Of a stretch of DNA of 35,256 nucleotides, positions 3,316 through 34,366 are shown in pieces (the stretch's first letter is position 1; each line of letters starts with the position of its first letter). Source of the stretch: Herbinix sp. (GTDB lineage: Bacteria > Bacillota > Clostridia > Lachnospirales > Lachnospiraceae). The translations under genes were made by a program, and so were the position numbers. A model generated the notes under the pieces. It was not told where the DNA came from, ran no database searches, and saw only the letters and a list, made by a program, of their open reading frames with translations. Location: positions 1 to 35,256 of the forward strand of contig JAQUYQ010000015.1 in NCBI GenBank assembly GCA_028691795.1. Reading direction: 5' to 3'.

Positions 3316-4824
3316 ATGGCAAATGGAACAATAGGATTTGAAGACAAGCTATGGCTAGCAGCAGATAAATTAAGAGGAAGCATGGATGCATCAGAATATA
3401 AGCATGTGGTATTGGGTCTTATATTCTTGAAATTCGTATCGGATTCCTTTAATAGTAAATATGAAGATTTAGTACATGAGGCTGCAGGATTTGAAGAAGA
3501 TAAGGATGAGTATCTGGCTGAGAACATCTTCTATGTTCCTATTGATGCTAGATGGAGTGTTATTTCTTCCTATGCTACGTCGCCAGAAATAGGAAAAGTA
3601 ATTGATAATGCTATGGAAATTCTTGAAAAGGAAAATCCGGTATTAAAAGGGGTGTTAAGCAAAAATTATTCTAGACCGGAACTTGATAAGACAAGATTAG
3701 GTGAATTAGTAACTTTATTTACAAATATTGATGTAGGTACGGATTCAGCAATTGAAAGAGATGTACTAGGAAGGGTATATGAATACTTCCTTGGTAAGTT
3801 TGCCAGTGCTGAAGGTAAATTAGGAGGAGAATTCTATACTCCATCATGTATAGTACGTACTTTGGTTGAAATCATAGAGCCTTATAAAGGTAGAATATAT
3901 GACCCATGTTGTGGCTCAGGTGGTATGTTCTGCCAGTCTGCGAAATTCATTAAGGAACATCAGGGTAATGTCAATAATATCTCTGTATACGGTCAAGAGA
4001 GCAACCCGACAACTTGGAAGCTTGCGAAAATGAATTTGGCATTAAGACAGATCGATGCAGATCTTGGAACCCATAATGCAGATTCCTTCCATGAGGATTT
4101 ACATAAGCAGTTGAAGGCGGACTTCATTCTTGCCAATCCGCCTTTCAACATTTCTGATTGGGGTGGAGAAAAAATTCAGGAGGATGTTCGTTGGAGATAT
4201 GGAACACCTCCGACAGGTAATGCAAATTATGCCTGGTTACAGCATATGCTTCATCATCTTAATCCGATGAATGGTGTCTGTGGCACGGTTCTTGCAAATG
4301 GATCATTAAGCTCGAATACATCAAATGAAGGGGTTATTCGTGCAAATATGCTACGTTCTGATGTTGTGGAGTGTATTGTTGCAATGCCGGGACAATTATT
4401 CTATTCCACTGGTATTCCTGTATGTCTTTGGATTATGAGAAAAGGTAAAAATGAAAGTACCAAGGAGAAGGTACTGTTTATCGACGCCAGAAATCTTGGT
4501 CATATGATTGACCGACGTGTCCGTGAATTAAGTGAGGAAGATATTCAGAAAATAGCTGATACCTATCATAAGTGGAAAAATAATCAGGGATATGAGGATG
4601 TACAAGGCTTCTGTAAGGTAGTAACTATAGATGAGATATCGGAGAATGATTATGTCCTTACTCCGGGAAGATATGTTGGAATTGAAGTGGTAGAGGATGA
4701 TGGCATACCATTTGAAGAGAAAATAGAGAAGCTGACAAAAGAGATTAGTCAGCAGTTTAAGGAATCCAGAGAGTTGGAGGAAAAAATAAAGAAGGCTCTT
4801 GGAGGGATTGGATATGAATTATAG
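3316..4824 (+). CDS. hsdM: Type I restriction-modification system, DNA adenine methyltransferase subunit M
   Basis: A 502-residue N6-adenine methyltransferase, full length for the family. An N-terminal HsdM helical domain (about residues 8-140; SEYKHVVLGLIFLKFVSD is characteristic) is followed by the catalytic domain: DPCCGSGGMF (196-205) is the SAM-binding motif I, and NPPF (274-277) is the catalytic motif IV that contacts the flipped adenine. QESN at about 227-230 precedes the usual N-terminal helix of the SAM fold. It works as an M2S methylase with HsdS and as M2SR2 with HsdR. AAAGGGG precedes the ATG. Its last 11 bases overlap hsdS. Confidence 0.96.
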   Translation: MANGTIGFEDKLWLAADKLRGSMDASEYKHVVLGLIFLKFVSDSFNSKYEDLVHEAAGFEEDKDEYLAENIFYVPIDARWSVISSYATSPEIGKVIDNAMEILEKENPVLKGVLSKNYSRPELDKTRLGELVTLFTNIDVGTDSAIERDVLGRVYEYFLGKFASAEGKLGGEFYTPSCIVRTLVEIIEPYKGRIYDPCCGSGGMFCQSAKFIKEHQGNVNNISVYGQESNPTTWKLAKMNLALRQIDADLGTHNADSFHEDLHKQLKADFILANPPFNISDWGGEKIQEDVRWRYGTPPTGNANYAWLQHMLHHLNPMNGVCGTVLANGSLSSNTSNEGVIRANMLRSDVVECIVAMPGQLFYSTGIPVCLWIMRKGKNESTKEKVLFIDARNLGHMIDRRVRELSEEDIQKIADTYHKWKNNQGYEDVQGFCKVVTIDEISENDYVLTPGRYVGIEVVEDDGIPFEEKIEKLTKEISQQFKESRELEEKIKKALGGIGYEL

Positions 4825-5953
4825 TGATATTATGGAGCTTAAACTTAATCAGATATTTATATTTTCTAATGGAAAAAAGAGACCAAGTGAAAAGGGAAAT
4901 ATACCTGTATATGGTGGCAATGGTGTACTAGATTATTGTGATAATTTTAATACAGAAGGAGAAAGTATAGTTATTGGAAGAGTTGGCGCATATTGTGGAA
5001 GTGTTTATTGTGAAAACAATAAAATCTGGGTTTCAGATAATGCAATATTAGCAAAAGTTAAGGATGATTTTGATTTTTATTTTATGTATTATCTTCTACT
5101 ACATATGAAGTTAAATGATTTCCATATCGGGAGTAGCCAACCTCTTTTAACTCAAGAAATATTAAATAATTTGTCAGCTAAGATTCCTAATCCTGATTAT
5201 CAGAAGCGATCAGGGCAGATATTAAAATATCTAGATGATAAAATCAGACTTAATTATAAACTAAATGATAATTTAGAATTGTTAATTAGCAATATATATG
5301 AATCTTGGTTTGAGAATTTTAGCGTTTATGAGGAAACAGAATTTAAAGAATCTGAGATTGGCTTAATACCTGCTTCCTGGGAATTAGTTGAGTTGGATAA
5401 TGTATGTGAAAGTGTTTCTAAAAAGCATGCATTTGATAAAGAGCAATTAATATTTCTGAATACAGGTGATGTTACAAATGGTCAATTTGCTCATTCTAAT
5501 TACAGTGAAGTTTCATCAATGCCTGGACAAGCTAAGAAAAGCATAAAACAGAATGATATACTTTATAGTGAAATCAGACCCATAAATCAACACTATGCGT
5601 ATGTAAATTTTGATTCCGAAGACTACGTAGTTTCAACAAAACTAATGGTTATAAGAGCAAAAAGTATATCACCAAGGAGATTATATAATTTTTTAACATC
5701 ACAAAAAATTATAAATGATTTGCAAATGGAAGCAGAAAGCAGATCGGGTACGTTTCCTCAAATCACTTTTGATATTATCAAAAAAAAGCGAATTTTGATT
5801 GCGGATAAGATAACTGAAGAAAAATTCTCGCGGTTTTTGGAGGATGTTTATGAAAAAGTAGATTCAAATATTAAAGAAAACACCTTGCTTTCAGAAATTA
5901 GAAACACCTTGCTTACCAAATTAATGGCTGGAGAACTAGATTTAGAATGTTGA
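4814..5953 (+). CDS. hsdS: Type I restriction-modification system, specificity subunit S
   Basis: About 379 residues. The ATG at 4814 is preferred over an upstream TTG at 4799 because GGAGGG (4801-4806) sits 7 bases before it. The protein has two target-recognition halves, about residues 3-135 and 180-330, joined by a conserved helix (KYLDDKIRLNYKLNDNLELL region) that sets the spacing between the two half-sites of a bipartite recognition sequence; the second helix near the C terminus ends LLTKLMAGELDLEC. Both recognition halves are AT-rich compared with hsdM, as is common for these frequently exchanged regions. The target sequence cannot be deduced from the protein alone. No inverted copy of hsdS for phase switching is visible. 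Confidence 0.93.
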   Translation: MNYSDIMELKLNQIFIFSNGKKRPSEKGNIPVYGGNGVLDYCDNFNTEGESIVIGRVGAYCGSVYCENNKIWVSDNAILAKVKDDFDFYFMYYLLLHMKLNDFHIGSSQPLLTQEILNNLSAKIPNPDYQKRSGQILKYLDDKIRLNYKLNDNLELLISNIYESWFENFSVYEETEFKESEIGLIPASWELVELDNVCESVSKKHAFDKEQLIFLNTGDVTNGQFAHSNYSEVSSMPGQAKKSIKQNDILYSEIRPINQHYAYVNFDSEDYVVSTKLMVIRAKSISPRRLYNFLTSQKIINDLQMEAESRSGTFPQITFDIIKKKRILIADKITEEKFSRFLEDVYEKVDSNIKENTLLSEIRNTLLTKLMAGELDLEC

Positions 5954-6140
5954 TGGTTCTGCAGACATTGCACAACCAATAATGGGTAACATAAAAAAGA
6001 GATCACTTGAGAATAGGAAATTAAGTAGTTTTTGGAACATGCTTTTTCCTAAACGCATGAATGGAGATGGTGACTTAGCTTCCTCAAACATAGAGCTTTG
6101 TTATAAATGTTAAATAGATAAAATTAGGATGGGTGAAAAA

Positions 6141-6533
6141 ATGAGTGAAATAATAAATACATTTCTTATTTCCTGCGTTCCTGCACTTATAACAGGGATA
6201 ATTACATATCTAACAACTAAAAAAACAACAACAACACAGATGGAATCATTAATAGAAGAAAATCGGCATGATATTGAAAGATTGATGAAACAGCACGAGA
6301 TTGATATAGAATCATTGAAAGAAAAACATATTTTAGAACAAGAACGAATTGAAAATGAACATAAGCATAAATTAGAAATTATAAGTTTGGAGCATCAATA
6401 TGATATTGATAAAAAGGATAAAGAACAAAGTAGTGCTGCGATGTATGGCGTTATGGGTGAACTGTTTACTAATCCACAGAAACTTAATGAACTTATGAAA
6501 CTTGCAGATCATCCTATGTTTAAAAAGAAGTAG
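6141..6533 (+). CDS. Small membrane-anchored coiled-coil protein of the RM island
   Basis: About 130 residues. The ATG at 6141 is chosen because GGTGA lies just upstream; an in-frame ATG at 6129 would add four residues. Residues 4-24 (IINTFLISCVPALITGIITYL) form one hydrophobic membrane segment. Residues 30-100 are a long, highly charged helix rich in Glu, Lys and His, very probably a coiled coil, with repeats of the type HDIERLMKQHEIDIESLKEK. A short tail (MGELFTNPQKLNELMKLADH) follows. Topology would leave the coiled coil in the cytoplasm. It sits between hsdS and the ATPase gene, on the same strand. I do not recognise a named family; a scaffold or anchor for the island's other proteins is only a guess. 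Confidence 0.65.
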   Translation: MSEIINTFLISCVPALITGIITYLTTKKTTTTQMESLIEENRHDIERLMKQHEIDIESLKEKHILEQERIENEHKHKLEIISLEHQYDIDKKDKEQSSAAMYGVMGELFTNPQKLNELMKLADHPMFKKK

Positions 6534-6608
6534 CAATAAGTTAAAAAGTCGTGTTGTGTAAGGAGAATGTTTTGTAAGCTAAATTGGTATTTTTAATATG
6601 GGGGTAGT

Positions 6609-7862
6609 ATGAAAGATAATTATGAAATAAAGCTTTCTATGGACAATATGAATACACCAAAACATTTTAATGATTCTATATTATCAGGAATTAGGAAGGG
6701 CTATACTGATTTTAATGTTTTTATTAACGATAAGCAAAAAACTTATCCTAATATTTGTGTGCCAGTAGCTGGTATTACAGAATATTATAGAAATTTGAAT
6801 TTGAATATCACTTTTACTTTTCCACCCAATGAATTAGATTATATAAAACATACGGCCTTTGGAAAACCATATATTATCGAAGATGATGTGCAAATAACTG
6901 ATCTTAGATATCCGCTTGATAAAGTATGGAAATTTAGTACTTCTGAAGGAGTTAACGCAATAGTAACAGCAATAACAAATTCAATCAGGGAATCAGAGCA
7001 ATTAGTGTGTGGAGTGTTGAATAGTATTGAATGGTGTTTGAATGAAGTAATGGATAACGTATTACAGCACTCAGAATCTCCTTATGGATTAGTTATGGTA
7101 CAATTACATAAGGCTACTTCTAAATTATCTATATGTGTTTTTGACAGTGGTAGAGGAATTTATAATTCGTTAAAGAATTCTAAACATAGGCCACACAAAC
7201 CATTGGATGCAATTACACTTGCATTACAAGAACGTGTAACAAGGGATGAGAGAGTGGGACAAGGAAATGGAATGTGGGGTTTATCAAGAATTATAGATGA
7301 AAACAAAGGTGGTATAAAAATAAGTTCTTGTGGTGCAGTATATAGTTTTTTATATGATAAGGTCAAAACGGTTGAGAGTGGTTATATGCATTTTGGAAAA
7401 GAAAATGGAACAACTTTAGTTGATTTTCAAATTGATTACTCTAAGTCGATAGATATTTCAAAAGCATTAAATAGTTATAAACCTGTAGACTTATGGTTGG
7501 AAAATAGAGAATTAGATTCGGGAGAGTTTTTATTTAAAGTTTCTGAGGATTCGGCTGGAACCGGAACCAGAAAAGCTGCTTTACGATTTAAAAATATAGT
7601 GCTGAATACACTTCGAGAAAATAATAAAAAAATTATATTAGATTTCGAGAAGGTTAATTTGGTTAGTTCTTCATATGCGGACGAGTTAATTGGTAAGATT
7701 ATATCAGATTATGGATTTGTTTTCTTTATAAACAATTTTGAAATAAGAAATATAACTGAACTAAATATAGGAGTAATAAATAGATCGGTCGAACAACGTA
7801 TGGCACAATCTTATTATGATAGTAGTATCGAAGATGATCAAGACGTTACAACAACATGGTAA
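6609..7862 (+). CDS. GHKL ATPase fused to a C-terminal STAS-like (DUF4325) domain
   Basis: A 417-residue soluble protein. Residues 1-110 match nothing I know. Residues 115-255 carry a GHKL (histidine-kinase type) ATP-binding fold: N box NEVMDN (145-150), G1 box DSGRGI (179-184) and G2 box GQGNGMWGL (217-225). No histidine-phosphorylation helix is visible, so it is an ATPase or serine kinase type rather than a classical sensor kinase. Residues 305-400 resemble STAS-like DUF4325 domains (ILDFEKVNLVSSSYADELIGKI). ATPase plus STAS pairing recalls the anti-sigma kinase/antagonist logic of SpoIIAB/SpoIIAA, here in one chain. It lies inside a type I RM island beside nuclease genes, so a control or defence role is an inference. 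A GGGGG site precedes the ATG. Very AT-rich. Confidence 0.75.
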   Translation: MKDNYEIKLSMDNMNTPKHFNDSILSGIRKGYTDFNVFINDKQKTYPNICVPVAGITEYYRNLNLNITFTFPPNELDYIKHTAFGKPYIIEDDVQITDLRYPLDKVWKFSTSEGVNAIVTAITNSIRESEQLVCGVLNSIEWCLNEVMDNVLQHSESPYGLVMVQLHKATSKLSICVFDSGRGIYNSLKNSKHRPHKPLDAITLALQERVTRDERVGQGNGMWGLSRIIDENKGGIKISSCGAVYSFLYDKVKTVESGYMHFGKENGTTLVDFQIDYSKSIDISKALNSYKPVDLWLENRELDSGEFLFKVSEDSAGTGTRKAALRFKNIVLNTLRENNKKIILDFEKVNLVSSSYADELIGKIISDYGFVFFINNFEIRNITELNIGVINRSVEQRMAQSYYDSSIEDDQDVTTTW

Positions 7863-7924
7863 GTTAAATTGGTATTAAGATTGTAGCATGAATCTGGATG
7901 TAAGGTGGGAAAGGTTATGATGAA

Positions 7925-8494
7925 ATGAATGATAAGGTTTCTATATTACAAGAGATATCGTATATGTTGCTGCAAGGAAATAGGAAGCAGGCAAAAGAGA
8001 TAATTCAAAATCAATATCCTTTTCAAAAACAAGAAATCTTTCACCGGCAATATACGATAAGGCAGAAGATGAAGGTTTTTCGAAAAGATGGATTTATTGA
8101 TAGATATTCTGGAAATAGGTTGGTTAATCCAGGCATATTGAAGATATATTCTACATATTTTCCGGAACAATTTCCTTATCATAAAAATGGAAAAATGACT
8201 GAGGGACACATTGCATATTGGGAGATGTTTCCCACAATTGATCATGTTATTCCAATCGCTGTTGGTGGAGTAGATAATGAAAGTAATTGGGTAACAACAT
8301 CAATGCTTAACAACTCAATTAAATCTAATTGGACATTAGAACAGCTCAAGTGGGCTTTACTAGAGCCTGGTCATTTTGATGATTGGGATGGACTTACCGG
8401 TGATTTCATAAGGCATGTTGAGAGGGATAAAGTCTTATTAGCTGATCGGTATATAAAGAATTGGTATTTGGCATCAAAGGATATAATGAAATGA
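7925..8494 (+). CDS. HNH endonuclease family protein
   Basis: A 189-residue protein. Residues 58-69 (FIDRYSGNRLVN) take the place where many relatives have a CxxCG zinc knuckle; cysteines are absent here. The core is TIDHVIPIAVGG (104-115), with the catalytic Asp106/His107 pair, then NWVTTSMLNNSIKSN (121-135) giving the Asn of the HNH motif; WTLEQLKWALLEPG and WDGL follow as in a widespread bacterial family. It would cut or nick DNA with a divalent metal. Upstream ATGs at 7917 and 7920 run into a stop at once, so 7925 is the start, with AAAGG about 10 bases before it. Its place in the RM island suggests a restriction or defence role; its substrate is unknown. Confidence 0.82.
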   Translation: MNDKVSILQEISYMLLQGNRKQAKEIIQNQYPFQKQEIFHRQYTIRQKMKVFRKDGFIDRYSGNRLVNPGILKIYSTYFPEQFPYHKNGKMTEGHIAYWEMFPTIDHVIPIAVGGVDNESNWVTTSMLNNSIKSNWTLEQLKWALLEPGHFDDWDGLTGDFIRHVERDKVLLADRYIKNWYLASKDIMK

Positions 8495-8521
8495 TACAAT
8501 GAAGTTTAAAAAGGAGATATT

Positions 8522-8891
8522 ATGGCATCGCTATACTTAACAGATATCTTATATGAATGACACGATAACATATTCTGAATGGCATACAGCGCTCTATTAT
8601 ATAAATGCCATCTATCTGATTGTTGATAGAAATAATGGAAAGCAATACGTTGGTAGCGCATATGGTAAAGATGGATTATTGGGTAGGTGGGCTATTTACG
8701 TAACAACCGGACATGGTAACAATAAGCTTATGAAGGAAGTTGTCTGTAATTATCCAGACAGATACAAAGAGTTTTAATTCTCTATCCTACAGATTCTTCC
8801 AAAGAATTTGACTGATGATGAGATAATAAAAATTGAATCATTATATAAGAAAAAATTAATGACGAAAGAATTTGGAATGAATGATAATTAA
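8522..8891 (+). pseudogene. GIY-YIG nuclease family gene, broken
   Basis: A GIY-YIG-type core is clear: AIYLIVDRNNGKQYVGSAYG followed by LLGRW and TTGHGNNKLMKE. The frame is damaged twice. First, the ATG with the good AAGGAG site (8522) opens a frame that stops after 12 residues, and the nuclease frame (ATG 8553) is shifted by one base and lacks the usual N-terminal region. Second, TAA at 8775-8777 interrupts the frame after NYPDRYKEF, but the same frame goes on with FSILQILPKNLTDDEIIKIE to TAA 8889-8891; relatives usually read a glutamine at the stop, so CAA to TAA is the likely change. The intact part would be 74 residues. It is probably a recent pseudogene of a family commonly seen with RM and HNH genes. 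Confidence 0.75.
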
Positions 8892-8923
8892 ATGTAAACG
8901 GGACTTAGCAGGGGGGAAATACT

Positions 8924-11900
8924 ATGCCATTCACAGAAGAAACTTTTGAACAAGCATTAATAGAAGAATTTGAGTCTAAAGGATACCATCATCTATACGC
9001 TCCCAATATTGCGAGAGATTACCACCAAGTAATATTGGAAGAATACTTCTATGAAGCAATGTTTAAGATTAATCCAGCAATTACAGCTGAAATAGCAGAA
9101 GAAGCTTATAAGCAAATACGTAATATAGGCTTAGTTAAGCTTGCGGATATTAATCAGGCTTTTCATAAGTTTCTTATTGAAGGTGTACCGATACCTTACA
9201 GATCAGGATATGAGAACAGGACATTCCAGGTAAAGTTGGTTGATTTTGATGCCCCTAAAAATAATCAATTTCATGTAGTAAATCAATTTACCGTAATTGA
9301 ATATAAGAATAAAAGACCGGATATTTTGATATTCATTAACGGTATTCCTTTGGTATTATTCGAGTTAAAAAGTGCTGTTTCAGAAGAGGCAACAATGGAA
9401 TACGCCTATAATCAGGTGAAGAATTATCAGAAGGATATTCCGACCTTATTTCACTACAATGCATTTAATGTAATCTCCGATGGCGTGAATGCAAGCATGG
9501 GAACAATTACAGCTGATTACACCAGATATATGACTTGGAAATCAAAAGATGGTGAACCCCCGGTGAAGGATTTTAGTCCTATCAGTGTATTAATGGAAGG
9601 GGTATTTAAGAAGGAACGGTTACTCGATATCATCCGTAATTTCATCGTATATCAGGATATCAAAGGGAATACAGTCAAGATCGTAGCTGGATATCATCAG
9701 TACTTTGCGGTTAGAAAAGCGGTTGAAAGAACAAAACTTGCTTTACAGAAGAATGATAAAAAAGTAGGTGTTGTATGGCATACACAGGGAAGTGGGAAAA
9801 GCTTTTCTATGGTTTTCTATACAGGGCTGATTGTTAGTGATCCGGAGTTTAGTAATCCCACCATTGTTGTGTTAACAGACCGTAATGACCTGGATAGTCA
9901 GTTATTTAATACATTTGCTGCTTGTTCCAAGCTACTATTAAGACAGGAACCAAAACAAGCTCAAGATAGAAGCAATTTAAAAGAGTTATTAAGCGTCAAT
10001 GCCGGAGGGATTGTATTTACAACGATTCAGAAGTTTGAGGAAAGTCCGGAGATATTAACTGACCGGAAAAATGTTATATTTATCGCAGATGAGGCACATC
10101 GATCCCAATATGGTTTGGATGCAAAGTTAGACCGTACTACTGGTGAATGGAAGTACGGATATGCTAAAAATATGCGTGATGCTTTACCAAATGCAACCTT
10201 TATCGGATTTACCGGAACCCCGATTGATAAGGATGATAAGTCTACCATTGAAACTTTTGGTGATTATATTGATGTATATGATATGACCCAGGCAGTAGAG
10301 GACGGTGCAACCGTACCAATCTATTATGAAAACAGAACTGCTAAACTGAAATTAGATGAGGATATATTAAAGCAAATAGATGATGAGTACAGTAAAATGA
10401 GTGGAGAGACAACCGAACTCATTATAGAGAAATCAAAAAAAGACTTGTCTAAGTTTGAAACCATCATCGGTTCCAAGCAAAGACTTGATATGCTGGCAAA
10501 TGATATCATAGCTCATTATGAGGACAGAAAATACGTATTATCAGGAAAAGCAATGATTGTATGTATGTCACGTAAAATAGCGATTGATTTATATAAGATG
10601 CTTTTAATTAAGCGACCTGATTGGGATAAAAAGGTAAAAGTAGTCCTTACGGAAAGTAACAAAGATGATGAATCCTGGCATGATATTATAGGCAATAAGG
10701 AATATCGGAAGGAGCTTGCTTACGAGTTCAAAGATGAGAAAAGTGATTTCAAGATAGCAATTGTTGTAGATATGTGGCTTACTGGATTTGATGTACCGTC
10801 TATGGCAACGATGTATATTGATAAACCAATGAAAGGTCACAATCTTATGCAGGCGATTGCAAGAGTTAATCGTGTGTATAAAGATAAGGAAGCCGGATTA
10901 ATTGTCGATTATATTGGTATGGCTGCAGAGCTCAAATCAGCATTAAACCAGTATACCAACAGAGATAAAGACAAAGTGCCAGATCTTACTAAGGCTCTAC
11001 AAATAGCCTTAGAAAAGTTAGAAATCATGAGAGACTTTTTCTATGGGTTTGATTATACTTCATTTTTCGGAGAGTCGAATAGGGATAGACTTGATATTCT
11101 TCTGAAAGGTGTGAACTTTGTTCTAGGAATTGAAGTGGAAGAAAAGAAAATCTTTATTCGAGAAGCTACTGCTCTTAGCCAGGCAGAAACATTATGTAGA
11201 AGCCTTCTATCCGATGACCTTAAAAAAGAAATAGAGTATTTCAAGGGAGTTAAAGCTGGTGTATGTAAAGTGACGACCGGTACTGGATTAACAGCTAATG
11301 AAGTTAACTCACGCATAGAAGCAATTTTAGAACAAGCAATACAACAGGATGGAGTTGTAAATGTATTTATCGCTGCAGGGAAGAAAAATCCGGAAATATC
11401 AATTCTTTCTGATGAATATATGAAGAGCATTCGTAATATGAAACATAAGAATATAGCTGCTGAGTTACTAAGAAAATTATTAGAAGACAATATCAAGGTA
11501 ATGAGTAGAACAGGAGTTGTTCAGGCTGAGTTATTCTCCAAAAAAATTAAGGCACTGCTAAAGCAATACAATAATCGACTGATTACAAGTGCAGAAGTGA
11601 TAGAAGAACTATTAAACTTGTCAAATGAAATGGTTACATCATATAATGCCGGTGATGAGAAGGGACTTTCTGTTGAGGAGTATGCATTTTACAATGCACT
11701 AGCAGCTGATCCCAAAGTGTTAGAAGAGATGCAGGATTCTGTATTGGTTGACATGGCTCATGAACTTACGGATATGATACGGAAAAACCGTACGGTTGAT
11801 TGGGATAAGAAAGAGTCCGCCAGAGCTGCAATGAGGAGCATGGTAAAACGATTACTCAGGAAGTATAAGTACCCACCAGAAAAGGCACAGGGTGCGGTGG

Positions 11901-11950
11901 ATATAGTAATCAAGCAGGCAGAGCTGATGAGTAATAACATGGAGGTATAG
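8924..11950 (+). CDS. hsdR: Type I restriction-modification system, restriction/translocase subunit R
   Basis: A full-length 1008-residue protein. The N-terminal nuclease has the PD-(D/E)xK pattern: Asp133 (RPDILIF), Glu147 and Lys149 (FELKS). The superfamily 2 translocase motor follows: TQGSGKS (287-293, Walker A), DEAH (389-392, motif II), FTGTP (429-433, motif III) and the late helicase motif QAIARVNRVY (about 640-650). A C-terminal helical region that binds the methylase completes it. It translocates unmethylated DNA past the complex and cuts at a distance, using ATP. A strong AGGGGGG site is 8 bases before the ATG. It is separated from hsdS by about 2.97 kb of cargo genes and followed directly by a small coupled gene. 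Confidence 0.96.
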   Translation: MPFTEETFEQALIEEFESKGYHHLYAPNIARDYHQVILEEYFYEAMFKINPAITAEIAEEAYKQIRNIGLVKLADINQAFHKFLIEGVPIPYRSGYENRTFQVKLVDFDAPKNNQFHVVNQFTVIEYKNKRPDILIFINGIPLVLFELKSAVSEEATMEYAYNQVKNYQKDIPTLFHYNAFNVISDGVNASMGTITADYTRYMTWKSKDGEPPVKDFSPISVLMEGVFKKERLLDIIRNFIVYQDIKGNTVKIVAGYHQYFAVRKAVERTKLALQKNDKKVGVVWHTQGSGKSFSMVFYTGLIVSDPEFSNPTIVVLTDRNDLDSQLFNTFAACSKLLLRQEPKQAQDRSNLKELLSVNAGGIVFTTIQKFEESPEILTDRKNVIFIADEAHRSQYGLDAKLDRTTGEWKYGYAKNMRDALPNATFIGFTGTPIDKDDKSTIETFGDYIDVYDMTQAVEDGATVPIYYENRTAKLKLDEDILKQIDDEYSKMSGETTELIIEKSKKDLSKFETIIGSKQRLDMLANDIIAHYEDRKYVLSGKAMIVCMSRKIAIDLYKMLLIKRPDWDKKVKVVLTESNKDDESWHDIIGNKEYRKELAYEFKDEKSDFKIAIVVDMWLTGFDVPSMATMYIDKPMKGHNLMQAIARVNRVYKDKEAGLIVDYIGMAAELKSALNQYTNRDKDKVPDLTKALQIALEKLEIMRDFFYGFDYTSFFGESNRDRLDILLKGVNFVLGIEVEEKKIFIREATALSQAETLCRSLLSDDLKKEIEYFKGVKAGVCKVTTGTGLTANEVNSRIEAILEQAIQQDGVVNVFIAAGKKNPEISILSDEYMKSIRNMKHKNIAAELLRKLLEDNIKVMSRTGVVQAELFSKKIKALLKQYNNRLITSAEVIEELLNLSNEMVTSYNAGDEKGLSVEEYAFYNALAADPKVLEEMQDSVLVDMAHELTDMIRKNRTVDWDKKESARAAMRSMVKRLLRKYKYPPEKAQGAVDIVIKQAELMSNNMEV

Positions 11951-31531: not shown

Positions 31532-32506
31532 ATGAAAAAAAGAAAAATTTTAACTGTTTTCTTATTAATAGCATTGGTAGCTTCTTCTTTAGCCGGCTGT
31601 GGTAAAAAAGACGAAGTATTTACAATCGGCGTAAACCAGTACGTTACCCATGCAGCACTTGATGCGAGCTATCAGGGGTTTGTTGATGCATTGGCAGACG
31701 CAGGCTACGTAGATGGAGAAAAAATCAAAATCGATCTGCAGAATGCACAGGGAGACCAATCCAATGCCAATACTATTGCTACAAAGTTAGTAAATGATAA
31801 CAATGATTTAATTCTGTCTATTGCTACACCATCCGCTCAGGCATCTGCAAATGCTACGAAGGATATTCCGATCCTAGTAACTGCGGTGACAGATCCCCAG
31901 GGTTCCGGTCTTGTGGCTTCTAATGATGCTCCGGGTGGAAATGTATCCGGAACTTCGGATTTAACTCCGATCAAAGACCAGATTGAATTACTGATGAAAC
32001 TGGTTCCGAGTGTAAAGACCGTTGCGGTTTTATACTGTTCCAGTGAAAGCAACTCTAAGATCCAAGCAGAAATTGCAATGGAAGCAGCTGCAGAATTTGG
32101 TTTAACGGCACAGGAAGCTACCGTATCCAACTCCAATGAAATCCAGCAGGTGGTTCAGTCCTTAGTAGGTAAAGTAGATGCTATTTATGCACCTACAGAT
32201 AATATTATTGCAGCAGGTATGCCAACAGTTTCTCTAGTTGCAAATGACAATGGAATACCGGTTATTTGTGGCGAAGAAGGAATGGTTGATGCAGGCGGCC
32301 TAGCAACGTATGGTATTGATTACTACAAATTAGGAAGACTGACCGGAGAGCAGGCAGTTCAAATTATAGAAGGAAAAGCAACTACCGATAAAATGCCTAT
32401 TGGATACTTATCAAACGATCAGTATACGCTGAAGATTAATGAGGAAGTTGCTGGAAAACTCGGAATTACCATTCCCGAGGATTTGAAAGCTCAGGCAGGG
32501 CAATAA
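31532..32506 (+). CDS. ABC transporter substrate-binding lipoprotein (TrpX-like)
   Basis: A 324-residue lipoprotein. The signal peptide ends in lipobox LAGC with Cys23. The mature part is the ABC_sub_bind fold (PF04392 type): FTIGVNQYVTHAALDASYQG, TIATKLVNDNNDLILSIATP, TDPQGSGLVASNDAPGGNVS, VKTVAVLYCSSESNSKIQ, VDAIYAPTDNIIAAGMP and AGGLATYGIDYYKLGRLTGE are standard blocks. Relatives (pneumococcal TrpX, CD0873 of C. difficile) bind tryptophan or tyrosine, so an aromatic amino acid is the best guess. GGAGG is about 6 bases before the ATG. A very strong stem-loop follows. Confidence 0.92.
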   Translation: MKKRKILTVFLLIALVASSLAGCGKKDEVFTIGVNQYVTHAALDASYQGFVDALADAGYVDGEKIKIDLQNAQGDQSNANTIATKLVNDNNDLILSIATPSAQASANATKDIPILVTAVTDPQGSGLVASNDAPGGNVSGTSDLTPIKDQIELLMKLVPSVKTVAVLYCSSESNSKIQAEIAMEAAAEFGLTAQEATVSNSNEIQQVVQSLVGKVDAIYAPTDNIIAAGMPTVSLVANDNGIPVICGEEGMVDAGGLATYGIDYYKLGRLTGEQAVQIIEGKATTDKMPIGYLSNDQYTLKINEEVAGKLGITIPEDLKAQAGQ

Positions 32507-32550
32507 TCATAGTAACAGTTCAGAAAAACATACATAAGAGAACATAATAT

Positions 32551-32592
32551 AGGGTTGCCGCAATAAGATATCAACTAAGTTGCGGCAGCCCT
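32551..32592 (+). other. Strong stem-loop between binding-protein and permease genes
   Basis: AGGGTTGCCGCAA (32551-32563) pairs with TTGCGGCAGCCCT (32580-32592) over 13 bp with one G-T; the loop is 16 bases. No T run follows. It is GC-rich in an AT-rich gap, 45 bases after the binding-protein stop and 49 before the permease start. The likely role is to stabilise the binding-protein message and reduce expression of permease and ATPase. Confidence 0.65.
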
Positions 32593-32640
32593 CCATTTGC
32601 TAAAATAGAATTTTAACATCAGAAGAAAGGAAAACACAAT

Positions 32641-33570
32641 ATGAATATAGTTATGGCAATATTCGGAGCGGTTTCCCAAGGATTAACCTGGGCTATTTTA
32701 GCACTGGGTGTCTATCTAACCTTCCGAATTTTAAATTTTGCAGATATGTCCTGTGAAGGAAGTTTTGCATTAGGAGGAAGCATCAGTGCAGTTCTGATGG
32801 TAAACTTCCAATGGAATCCGTTTTTAACACTGATCGTTTCCACCCTAGCAGGCGCGGCGGCAGGTGCTGTAACAGGCTTTCTACATACCAGACTTAAGAT
32901 CCCGGCAATTCTTTCAGGTATCCTTACCATGATAGGTTTATATTCTGTAAATCTCCGTGTCATGGGACAGGCAAATACATCACTCATCGGACAGAATACG
33001 CTGATCATGATGATTAAGGGGCTGTTACCTGAGGCAAAAGAATTGGGGATCAAAGATTCTACTCTGCAGACCTGGGTCACGATGGGGGTAGGACTGGTAT
33101 TTATTTTTGCAGTCATTATGATTCTATACTGGTTCTTTGGAACAGAAATTGGCTGCTGTATACGTGCAACCGGAAACAATGAAGCAATGGTAAGAGCACA
33201 GGGAGTAAATACCGATAAGATGAAAATTCTCGGCCTTTTGTTTAGCAATGGTCTGATTGGTCTTTCCGGTGCTTTGGTAACACAAAGTCAAGGTTATGCC
33301 GATGTCAGTATGGGCGTTGGTGCGATTGTGATTGGATTGGCCTCCATTGTAATCGGTGAAGTATTATTGCTAAGAGTTAAGAATTTTGCCGGTAAGCTGA
33401 TTGCTATTGTAGTAGGATCTATTATTTACCGAATTATTATAGCTGTAGTTTTACAGTTTGGTCTGGCTACCGATGACTTAAAACTATTTACAGCGATTGT
33501 GGTTGCACTTGCGCTGTCCGTTCCCGTTCTAAAGAGTAAAAAGGGAATGATACGGAAGGAGGCCAGATAG
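32641..33570 (+). CDS. ABC transporter permease (TrpY-like)
   Basis: A 309-residue membrane protein with eight or nine hydrophobic segments. LRILNFADMSCEGSFALGGS-like text (RILNFADMSCEGSFALGGSI), AAGAVTGFLHTRLKIPAILSGI, CCIRATGNNEAMVRAQGVNT and GALVTQSQGYADVSMGVGAI are typical of permeases paired with ABC_sub_bind proteins. GAAAGGA lies before the ATG. The stop is one base away from the next start, so it is tightly coupled to the ATPase gene. Confidence 0.92.
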   Translation: MNIVMAIFGAVSQGLTWAILALGVYLTFRILNFADMSCEGSFALGGSISAVLMVNFQWNPFLTLIVSTLAGAAAGAVTGFLHTRLKIPAILSGILTMIGLYSVNLRVMGQANTSLIGQNTLIMMIKGLLPEAKELGIKDSTLQTWVTMGVGLVFIFAVIMILYWFFGTEIGCCIRATGNNEAMVRAQGVNTDKMKILGLLFSNGLIGLSGALVTQSQGYADVSMGVGAIVIGLASIVIGEVLLLRVKNFAGKLIAIVVGSIIYRIIIAVVLQFGLATDDLKLFTAIVVALALSVPVLKSKKGMIRKEAR

Positions 33571-33571
33571 T

Positions 33572-34366
33572 ATGCTGAAAATGACGAATATCTATAAAAC
33601 ATTTAACCCTAATACCGTAAACGAGAAGTTGGTTTTAAGGGGATTAAACGTGGAGCTTAAGGATGGAGATTTTGTAACAGTAATCGGTGGCAATGGTGCC
33701 GGTAAATCAACCATGCTGAACATGATAGCCGGGGTTCATTTCCCGGACCAGGGTTCCATCACCTTGGATGGGGAAGACATTACCGGTTTACCGGAACATA
33801 AAAGAGCAAAATATCTGGGGAGAGTATTCCAGGATCCGATGATGGGCACGGCTGCAAATATGGAAATTGAAGAAAACCTGGCACTGGCATATCGACGTGG
33901 ACAGAAACGTGGTCTTAACTGGGGCATCACCAAAGAAGAGAAAGAATTGTATGTTGAGAAGCTGAAAATGCTGGATTTGGGATTGGAGACCCGTCTAACG
34001 GCAAAGGTGGGACTGTTATCCGGAGGGCAACGGCAGGCCCTAACACTTCTTATGGCGACGTTGCAGCAGCCGAAGTTATTACTGCTGGATGAGCATACCG
34101 CAGCGTTGGATCCCAAGACTGCTAGCAAAGTATTAGAATTGTCGGAGCAGATCATTGCATCATACTCTCTGACCGCCTTAATGGTTACTCATAATATGAA
34201 AAACGCAATCCAGTATGGAAACCGCTTAATTATGATGTATGAAGGTAAAATCATTTACGATGTTTCGGGTGAGGAGAAAAAGAATCTTCATGTTAGTGAT
34301 CTTCTCGAGAAGTTTGAGAAGGCCAGTGGCGGAGAATTTGCAAATGACCGTATGATATTGTCATAA
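33572..34366 (+). CDS. ABC transporter ATP-binding protein (TrpZ-like)
   Basis: A 264-residue ATPase. Walker A GGNGAGKST (39-47), Q loop VFQDPMMGTA, signature LSGGQRQALTLLMA, Walker B LLLLDEHTAALDP and the H-loop VTHN are all present. The Walker B Glu is followed by His (DEH) rather than the usual Pro (DEP), a trait of this transporter subfamily, so it is not a defect. The ATG follows the permease stop immediately, with GGAGG 10 bases upstream inside the permease gene. A large hairpin with a T run ends the operon. Confidence 0.93.
   Translation: MLKMTNIYKTFNPNTVNEKLVLRGLNVELKDGDFVTVIGGNGAGKSTMLNMIAGVHFPDQGSITLDGEDITGLPEHKRAKYLGRVFQDPMMGTAANMEIEENLALAYRRGQKRGLNWGITKEEKELYVEKLKMLDLGLETRLTAKVGLLSGGQRQALTLLMATLQQPKLLLLDEHTAALDPKTASKVLELSEQIIASYSLTALMVTHNMKNAIQYGNRLIMMYEGKIIYDVSGEEKKNLHVSDLLEKFEKASGGEFANDRMILS

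What the first reader, a model, noticed from the sequence alone, without database searches (positions are those of the whole stretch)
5954..8923. Type I RM operon carrying a four-gene cargo between hsdS and hsdR
hsdM-hsdS and hsdR are same-strand but separated by about 3 kb of markedly AT-rich genes: a membrane coiled-coil protein, a GHKL ATPase/STAS-like fusion, an HNH nuclease and a broken GIY-YIG nuclease. Clean RM genes around a nuclease-rich, regulator-like cargo look like a defence hotspot, and the cargo may itself be an anti-phage module that uses the RM operon's transcription.
Basis: partly seen in the sequence, partly recalled or inferred. Interest (0 to 1): 0.7.

Follow-up and report, generated by a model that had tools for sequence, protein, structure and literature searches.

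The report
Kinase-switch gene inside a restriction operon
A bacterial DNA-restriction operon carries, in a gap that related bacteria fill with changing genes, what looks like a one-piece version of a recently described phosphorylation switch that senses DNA damage; the neighbouring genes look like unrelated passengers rather than one new defence system.

Summary
In detail: hsdM, hsdS and hsdR are intact and on one strand, with three intact genes and one remnant between hsdS and hsdR. The slot is a cargo hotspot: of 14 relatives' regions with hsdS and hsdR in view, 11 carry an extra gene there, from 10 families (UG19 reverse transcriptase, FRG, HAD, HEPN and others). Such embedding is already published. 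The idea that the cargo is one anti-phage module is not supported: no other locus I held has two of the genes. The coiled-coil gene recurs in one other hsdS-hsdR slot, beside a SieB gene; the HNH gene lives in unrelated settings; the GIY-YIG gene is a decayed UzuA-like remnant. The interesting part is the 417-aa gene, read as (probable STAS)-GHKL kinase-STAS in one chain. Its only significant PDB sequence match is VapS, the STAS substrate of the VapKSC switch; the VapS acceptor serine (Ser48, if an 18-aa tag is assumed) aligns with invariant Ser354. Fused members lie on one branch of a tree spanning several phyla, and one lies between hsdR and hsdM in a second type I RM operon. Best reading: a fused VapK-VapS-type switch in an RM cargo slot, effector unknown.

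The parts
3316..4824 (+). hsdM, type I modification subunit
   Evidence: N6_Mtase E 6e-111, HsdM_N 2.3e-23
4799..5953 (+). hsdS, specificity subunit
   Evidence: Methylase_S E 1.4e-33, two stretches
6129..6533 (+). small membrane coiled-coil protein (probable N-terminal transmembrane helix, then charged coiled coil)
   Evidence: phrog_2542 E 6.9e-16; 36% identical homologue in an hsdS-hsdR slot of another family member, L021:7544-7882, also phrog_2542; transmembrane helix read from the sequence only
6609..7862 (+). probable STAS - GHKL kinase - STAS single-chain protein, VapK-VapS-like
   Evidence: DUF4325 6.1e-11, HATPase_c_2 1.3e-5; VapS 9z7o E 1.9e-5; AlphaFold pTM 0.82; SpoIIAB 1tid_C TMt 0.70, E 0.014; E146, N150, S354, S355 invariant in 13 of 13 fused rows, window included
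7925..8494 (+). HNH endonuclease of a family found in varied settings
   Evidence: HNH E 0.0015; 46-53% identical homologues in 3 of 249 other family genomes; further homologues in 19 plasmid records and 3 phage records
8522..8891 (+). decayed UzuA-like GIY-YIG gene: possible start at 8522, internal loss with frame change, in-frame stop at 8775-8777
   Evidence: PADLOC UzuA E 6.9e-29 at profile 168-240 of 278; tblastn with R. albus homologue; coordinates
8924..11950 (+). hsdR, type I restriction subunit
   Evidence: T1RH-like_C E 3.1e-100, SWI2_SNF2 3.4e-80, HSDR_N 1.6e-44
6574..6591 (+). first copy of an 18-bp direct repeat (17 of 18 identical) that closely brackets the GHKL/STAS gene
   Evidence: a pair this good somewhere in 4700-9100 arose in 9 of 200 shuffles
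7859..7876 (+). second copy of the same direct repeat, overlapping the gene's stop codon

Best explanation
The hsdS-hsdR gap of this type I RM operon is a cargo slot that exchanges genes. Here it holds independently acquired genes, one already decaying. The main one, 6609-7862, encodes a single-chain phosphorylation switch: a probable N-terminal STAS-like domain, a GHKL serine kinase and a C-terminal STAS domain with a conserved candidate phospho-acceptor serine. This is the VapK and VapS (or CapK and CapS) pair joined in one polypeptide. Proposed working: in resting cells the unphosphorylated C-terminal STAS domain holds a partner; when DNA damage or phage DNA processing activates the kinase, it phosphorylates Ser354 (or Ser355), within or between chains, and the partner is released. 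The partner could be the HNH nuclease 62 bp downstream, the membrane coiled-coil protein, or an RM subunit. Shown here: gene order, domain content, invariant kinase and serine residues, relation to VapS, slot turnover, and recurrence of the fused gene in a second RM operon. Inferred: kinase activity, the ssDNA trigger, release of a partner, and which partner.
For: C-terminal domain: DUF4325; only significant PDB sequence match Escherichia VapS 9z7o (E 1.9e-5), with chain Ser66 aligned to window Ser354. Ser66 is VapS Ser48 if the 134-aa chain carries an 18-aa tag (inferred from the paper's residue range to 116). Kinase: E146 and N150 (N box, motif name recalled), D179xGxG183 and G219xG221 invariant in 13 of 13 rows; SpoIIAB 1tid_C has the best target-normalised TM-score of the 50 rows listed (0.70; next 0.40; E 0.014), though no Foldseek hit reached E 0.001. 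Fused members lie on one side of one branch (98/96). RM association: L029 hsdR-kinase-hsdM with overlapping ORFs, then a gene read by eye as hsdS; L034, 74 bp after a D12 adenine methylase; a split kinase+STAS pair in L043 next to an N6-methylase/specificity fusion and a TIR gene. Slot turnover. Published mechanism of CapKS/VapKSC and their link to RM: PMC13373217, abstract, sections 7 and 13 and passages read.
Against: Of 13 other fused loci, only L029 is inside an RM operon, and L034 is next to a methylase; L029 is a 7.9-kb record marked UNVERIFIED phage, and its last gene, read as hsdS, has no Pfam match. L009 sits between metabolic-looking genes, L006 and L008 have no clear defence neighbour, and L090 is in a prophage-like stretch. 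No VapC-like gene is adjacent in the window. The N-terminal STAS assignment rests on the model's order of strands and helices only: no PDB match, and profile comparison with the C-terminal STAS gave probability 4%. SpoIIAB was rank 10, behind gyrase-type ATPases, by E-value. The effector is unidentified. The HNH and coiled-coil genes do not accompany the kinase in any other locus held.
Confidence: 0.6

Rival explanations
1. Kinase-effector pair: the fused kinase-STAS protein is the antitoxin and sensor for the HNH nuclease directly downstream, a VapKSC-like system with HNH in place of VapC.
For: Gene order kinase/STAS then nuclease with a 62-bp gap resembles the vapKSC operon of kinase, STAS protein and nuclease genes; HNH gene is intact.
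Against: 0 of 9 HNH neighbourhoods read hold a kinase of this family, and 0 of 13 other fused-kinase loci hold this HNH gene. An 18-bp repeat brackets the kinase gene without the HNH.
Confidence: 0.12
2. RM governor: the fused protein controls the type I enzyme itself (for instance HsdR) in response to DNA damage, a form of restriction alleviation or boosting.
For: Inside two type I RM operons of different gene order (window; L029), beside a D12 methylase (L034) and, in split form, beside an M-S fusion gene (L043). CapKS lies immediately downstream of a predicted RM system in 88 of 443 published cases.
Against: Most fused loci show no RM genes nearby; none of 14 sister slots holds the gene; no DNA-binding domain matched.
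Confidence: 0.15
3. Only passengers: the slot is a recombination-tolerant landing place, the genes are phage- or element-derived leftovers, and none acts with RM.
For: Coiled-coil, kinase and GIY-YIG proteins match phage families phrog_2542, phrog_3364 and phrog_26160; GIY-YIG gene decayed; no co-occurrence; the cluster lies in a region of about 28.5 kb after tRNA-Lys that is about 4 kb in a same-genus relative.
Against: The kinase gene keeps the catalytic and acceptor residues and the coiled-coil gene recurs in another hsdS-hsdR slot.
Confidence: 0.2
4. The first reader's module: coiled coil + ATPase + HNH act as one anti-phage system.
For: Same strand, gaps of 75 and 62 bp.
Against: No second locus held has any two of the three.
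Confidence: 0.05

Closest known systems
VapKSC (PMC13373217; section 13 read)
   Same: STAS+GHKL kinase and a STAS substrate with conserved serine; VapS is the only significant PDB sequence match
   Different: two separate proteins plus a VapC toxin there; here one chain and no VapC
CapK + CapS (PMC13373217; section 7 and passages read)
   Same: GHKL kinase and STAS substrate, often placed beside RM and defence operons
   Different: CapK has an HTH and CapS a wHTH DNA-binding domain; no such match here
SpoIIAB-SpoIIAA anti-sigma partner switching
   Same: GHKL kinase and STAS substrate; 1tid_C is the best target-normalised fold match of the 50 rows listed
   Different: two proteins that control a sigma factor (recalled)
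Genes embedded in type I RM operons: DarTG2 between hsdS and hsdR (PMC12255303, passages read); TgvAB and RloF (PMC11411939, passages read)
   Same: position of cargo inside the RM operon
   Different: different cargo genes; no kinase-STAS fusion named in the passages read

Membership tests
Type I restriction-modification | hsdM, hsdS and hsdR, each with its domains, in one gene cluster on one strand | tested here: met
Type I restriction-modification | active methylation and cleavage | not testable with these tools
   no methylome or assay
VapKSC | STAS + GHKL kinase | tested here: inconclusive
   GHKL clear; N-terminal STAS from the model's fold order only
VapKSC | STAS domain with conserved acceptor serine | tested here: met
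   Ser354 aligns with VapS Ser48 if an 18-aa tag is assumed; invariant in 13 of 13 rows
VapKSC | separate vapS gene and a PIN-domain vapC gene | tested here: not met
   one chain; next gene is HNH
CapKS | HTH on the kinase and wHTH on the STAS protein | tested here: not met
   no such Pfam match at E 0.1; the model's first strand starts at residue 5, leaving no room for an N-terminal HTH
CapKS / VapKSC | activation by ssDNA | not testable with these tools
   needs biochemistry
DISARM DrmA | large helicase protein (size and partners recalled) | tested here: not met
   PADLOC DrmA profile matches only positions 116-403 of 1750; protein is 417 aa without a helicase match
Uzume (UzuA) | intact UzuA gene | tested here: not met
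   74-aa C-terminal piece with losses and an in-frame stop
One co-conserved defence module | genes recur together elsewhere | tested here: not met
   no second locus among those held

The most novel reading that the evidence does not exclude
A one-polypeptide DNA-damage switch, kinase and its STAS substrate fused, travels between phyla as a plug-in controller and has been recruited into type I RM operons at least twice. There it would gate a companion effector or the restriction enzyme itself, giving RM a stress-responsive second stage.
Probability: 0.25. Interest if true: 0.75.

Novelty: new variant of a known kind. Interest (0 to 1): 0.45.

Why it matters
CapKS/VapKSC were described in 2026 as two-protein switches that connect DNA damage with defence. 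A fused, cross-phylum form would show that kinase and substrate can work as one portable part, and would let the switch be tested with a single gene. The hsdS-hsdR survey also shows how fast this slot turns over in one bacterial family and points to several uncharacterised cargo families as defence candidates.

Tried and rejected
Module by co-occurrence: not supported. HNH as an RM-linked gene: not supported; of its nine neighbourhoods read, none holds hsd genes, although L030 lists an AbiE-type pair and a gene annotated 'restriction endonuclease' within 6 kb and L026 a HicAB pair next to it. DrmA/DISARM: rejected on length and lack of a helicase match. Coiled-coil hit in G195 (L022): rejected as a chance match to a gene among V-type ATPase-like genes, read by eye. 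GHKL hit in G094 (L023), the only other hit among 99 relatives: rejected as a weak match to an efflux-like protein, by eye. Searches with no relatives: viral contigs for the kinase, HNH and coiled-coil proteins as single queries; plasmids and phages for the coiled coil; coiled-coil profile in 347 other phylum genomes. Alignment queries for the kinase in viral contigs gave two loci, the same two both times. Two sequence searches of solved structures gave no match: HNH and the N-terminal domain. The first kinase-STAS paper search with OR terms was mostly noise apart from PMC13373217. One paper opened for a lead, PMC7159879 (passages), did not help.

Not done: the N-terminal domain was not folded alone, and no comparison with the viral fold library or by VIA-align was made.
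Full report
WHAT IS THERE. The window holds an intact type I RM gene set on the + strand: hsdM 3316-4824, hsdS 4799-5953 and hsdR 8924-11950. Between hsdS and hsdR lie a 134-aa membrane coiled-coil gene, a 417-aa GHKL/STAS gene, a 189-aa HNH gene and a GIY-YIG remnant. The remnant keeps a possible start at 8522 and the part that matches residues 164-250 of an intact R. albus homologue. About 150 residues before that are lost, the frame changes, and there is an in-frame stop at 8775-8777. The interval's low GC (31.5% against 35.8%) is shared by hsdS (29.8%). The terminator scan gave no + strand hit between the genes.

THE SLOT. HsdR matched at E<=1e-100 in 22 of 250 genomes of the same family, the window's own included. 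Of the 21 others I fetched 17 upstream regions; four (G182, G045, G304, G206) were left out because the match begins at or near a contig start. Fourteen of the 17 show both hsdS and hsdR; in L088 and L089 the window's hsdS gave no match and Pfam Methylase_S identifies the gene. Eleven of the 14 carry an extra gene on hsdR's strand between them, and three (L076, L081, L088) carry none. One of the eleven is only 86 aa, with no Pfam match (L075). Two more regions (L079, L083) show a cargo-like gene at a contig edge without hsdS in view, and one (L080) has no hsdS in view. Among these 13 cargo genes only two pairs are related: L073 with L082, and L083 with L085, so the eleven fall into ten families. 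Pfam and PADLOC name an FRG protein (PDC-S15), DUF1643, a HEPN-like protein, PDC-M10B, a HAD protein (PDC-S34), a UG19 reverse transcriptase, DUF3800 and DUF4238; L073, L082 and L086 have no match in either library. PADLOC hits 5 of the 12 it was given (L075 was not given). None of the 17 regions holds any of the window's cargo genes at the thresholds used. The closest operon (HsdR 71% identical, L073) carries a different gene. So the slot is real and turns over fast. Embedding of defence genes in type I RM operons is published: DarTG2 between hsdS and hsdR, with the remark that the site may be a hotspot (PMC12255303, passages read), and TgvAB and RloF (PMC11411939, passages read).

NOT ONE MODULE. 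A scan of all loci held at that point (L001-L097) for the window proteins found no locus other than the window's own with two of the four cargo genes. The stretches are short, mostly 3-17 kb, so distant pairing is not excluded. The HNH gene has relatives in 3 of 249 other family genomes, 19 plasmid records and 3 phage records. Nine HNH neighbourhoods were read and none holds hsd genes. L030 does list an AbiE-type pair and a 'restriction endonuclease' within 6 kb, and L026 a HicAB pair. In L025 my ORF scan did not pick the HNH gene up, so there I rely on the record's own annotation. The coiled-coil query had two hits among 249 other family genomes. One was rejected by eye. The other, L021, lies between an HsdS gene and an HsdR gene, beside a SieB-domain gene (E 8.2e-21), in a cluster that also holds hsdM and an ATPase with a sub-threshold nSTAND3 match. 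Both coiled-coil proteins match phrog_2542. No relative was found in 347 other phylum genomes.

THE KINASE GENE. The 417-aa protein has HATPase_c_2 and DUF4325 (STAS-like) matches. A profile of seven family members finds one significant PDB entry, Escherichia VapS (9z7o, E 1.9e-5). VapS chain Ser66 aligns with window Ser354. If the 134-aa chain carries an 18-aa tag before a 116-aa protein, as the residue range in the paper suggests, Ser66 is the acceptor Ser48. Across 13 fused rows (window included, L010 left out), E146, N150, D179, G181, G183, G219, G221, S354, S355, D358, E359 and K363 are invariant. AlphaFold on eight sequences gives pLDDT 80.4 and pTM 0.82. Residues 5-81 alternate strands and helices as a STAS domain could, but this is not proven. 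Foldseek lists GHKL ATPases first, mostly gyrase B. SpoIIAB from its complex with its STAS partner (1tid_C, rank 10) has target-normalised TM 0.70 and probability 1.00 but E 0.014, and no match reached E 0.001. The N-terminal part has no PDB sequence match, and profile comparison with the C-terminal STAS domain gave 4% probability.

RELATIVES AND SETTINGS. Thirteen other fused loci were collected from Cyanobacteriota, Bacteroidota, Planctomycetota, Ignavibacteriota, Myxococcota, an unassigned bacterium, the window's own phylum, a plasmid and phage-like records. On a tree of 24 rows, 13 of them fused (window included; L010 left out because its frame is broken, L004 entered from residue 111 on), the fused rows lie on one side of one branch (98/96). 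This allows but does not prove one origin, and the C-terminal STAS columns, present only in fused rows, were part of that tree. Two-gene versions exist in L032, L033, L043, L092 and L095. Settings of the fused loci: L029 hsdR-kinase-hsdM with overlapping ORFs (hsdR by ResIII and EcoEI_R_C, hsdM by N6_Mtase and HsdM_N), then a 179-aa ORF read by eye as hsdS but without a Pfam match, in a 7.9-kb record marked UNVERIFIED phage; L034, 74 bp after a D12 adenine methylase; L041, overlapping a Fic gene; L007, after a DUF5615 gene, and L003, after a DAC-domain gene; L031, before a DUF5895 gene; L004 with an AlbA_2 gene and L005 with a HicB-like gene nearby on the other strand; L010 with a HigB-like gene about 2 kb downstream on the other strand; L008 among integrase-like genes, L009 between metabolic-looking genes and L006 without a clear defence neighbour, all by eye; L090 in a prophage-like stretch, by eye. 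Frequencies are low: 4 of 391 class genomes and 9 of 398 phylum genomes, own included and partial or split matches counted.

HOW IT MAY WORK. In CapKS and VapKSC the kinase is activated (shown for CapK, proposed for VapK) by ssDNA and phosphorylates a STAS-domain serine, which releases a repressor or a toxin; 88 of 443 capKS loci lie immediately downstream of a predicted RM system (PMC13373217: abstract, sections 7 and 13 and passages read). The window protein has both halves in one chain and the expected residues. The simplest reading is a self-contained switch whose partner is still unknown. A word search of that paper's main text gave no fused form, no HNH and no DUF4325, and DUF4325 occurs in two papers of the held library (listing only).

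SURROUNDINGS. In same-genus genome G006 the same trmB-trx-tRNA-Lys block is followed, after about 4 kb, by relatives of the ABC-transporter genes that lie at 31532-34366 here, about 28.5 kb from tRNA-Lys; in G004 the block is also followed by other genes. The RM cluster thus lies in a variable region. An 18-bp direct repeat (17 of 18) closely brackets the kinase gene at 6574 and 7859. A pair this good somewhere in the region occurred in 9 of 200 shuffles, so it suggests, but does not prove, a single-gene insertion.

VERDICT. Observation right; hotspot idea right but known; module idea not supported. The kinase-STAS fusion in RM operons is a new variant of a known kind, moderately interesting, and testable with one gene.

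Noticed in passing
window 2983-31532: The tRNA-Lys to ABC-transporter distance is about 28.5 kb here and about 4 kb in a same-genus relative (L110), so the RM operon sits in a large variable region beside tRNA-Lys.
   Followed up: partly
window 6574-6591 and 7859-7876: An 18-bp direct repeat closely brackets the kinase gene, possibly a scar of single-gene insertion.
   Followed up: partly
L084:3465-5582 (-): A UG19-type reverse transcriptase (705 aa) occupies the hsdS-hsdR slot of a relative.
   Followed up: no
L073:3432-4208 (-) and L082:8736-9554 (+): An unnamed 258-272 aa family with no Pfam or PADLOC match fills the hsdS-hsdR slot in two genomes, one with the closest HsdR (71%): a defence candidate.
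   Followed up: no
L043:7018-10947 (+): A split kinase + STAS pair is followed by a one-gene N6-methylase/specificity fusion and a TIR-domain gene, which may be another switch-controlled defence operon.
   Followed up: partly
window 6609-7862: The PADLOC DrmA profile PDLC02567 matches kinase-STAS proteins in its first 400 or so positions, so automatic calls of DISARM DrmA on such proteins may be false.
   Followed up: partly
L018:7373-8475 (-) and L027:6040-6890 (+): In two other loci the HNH gene is directly followed by a YaiI/YqxD-family (DUF188) gene, a recurring neighbour that has nothing to do with RM.
   Followed up: no
G000:C54:223-1552: The window's assembly holds a second trmB-trx stretch only 71% identical to the window's, which may mean mixed sequence in the assembly.
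   Followed up: no
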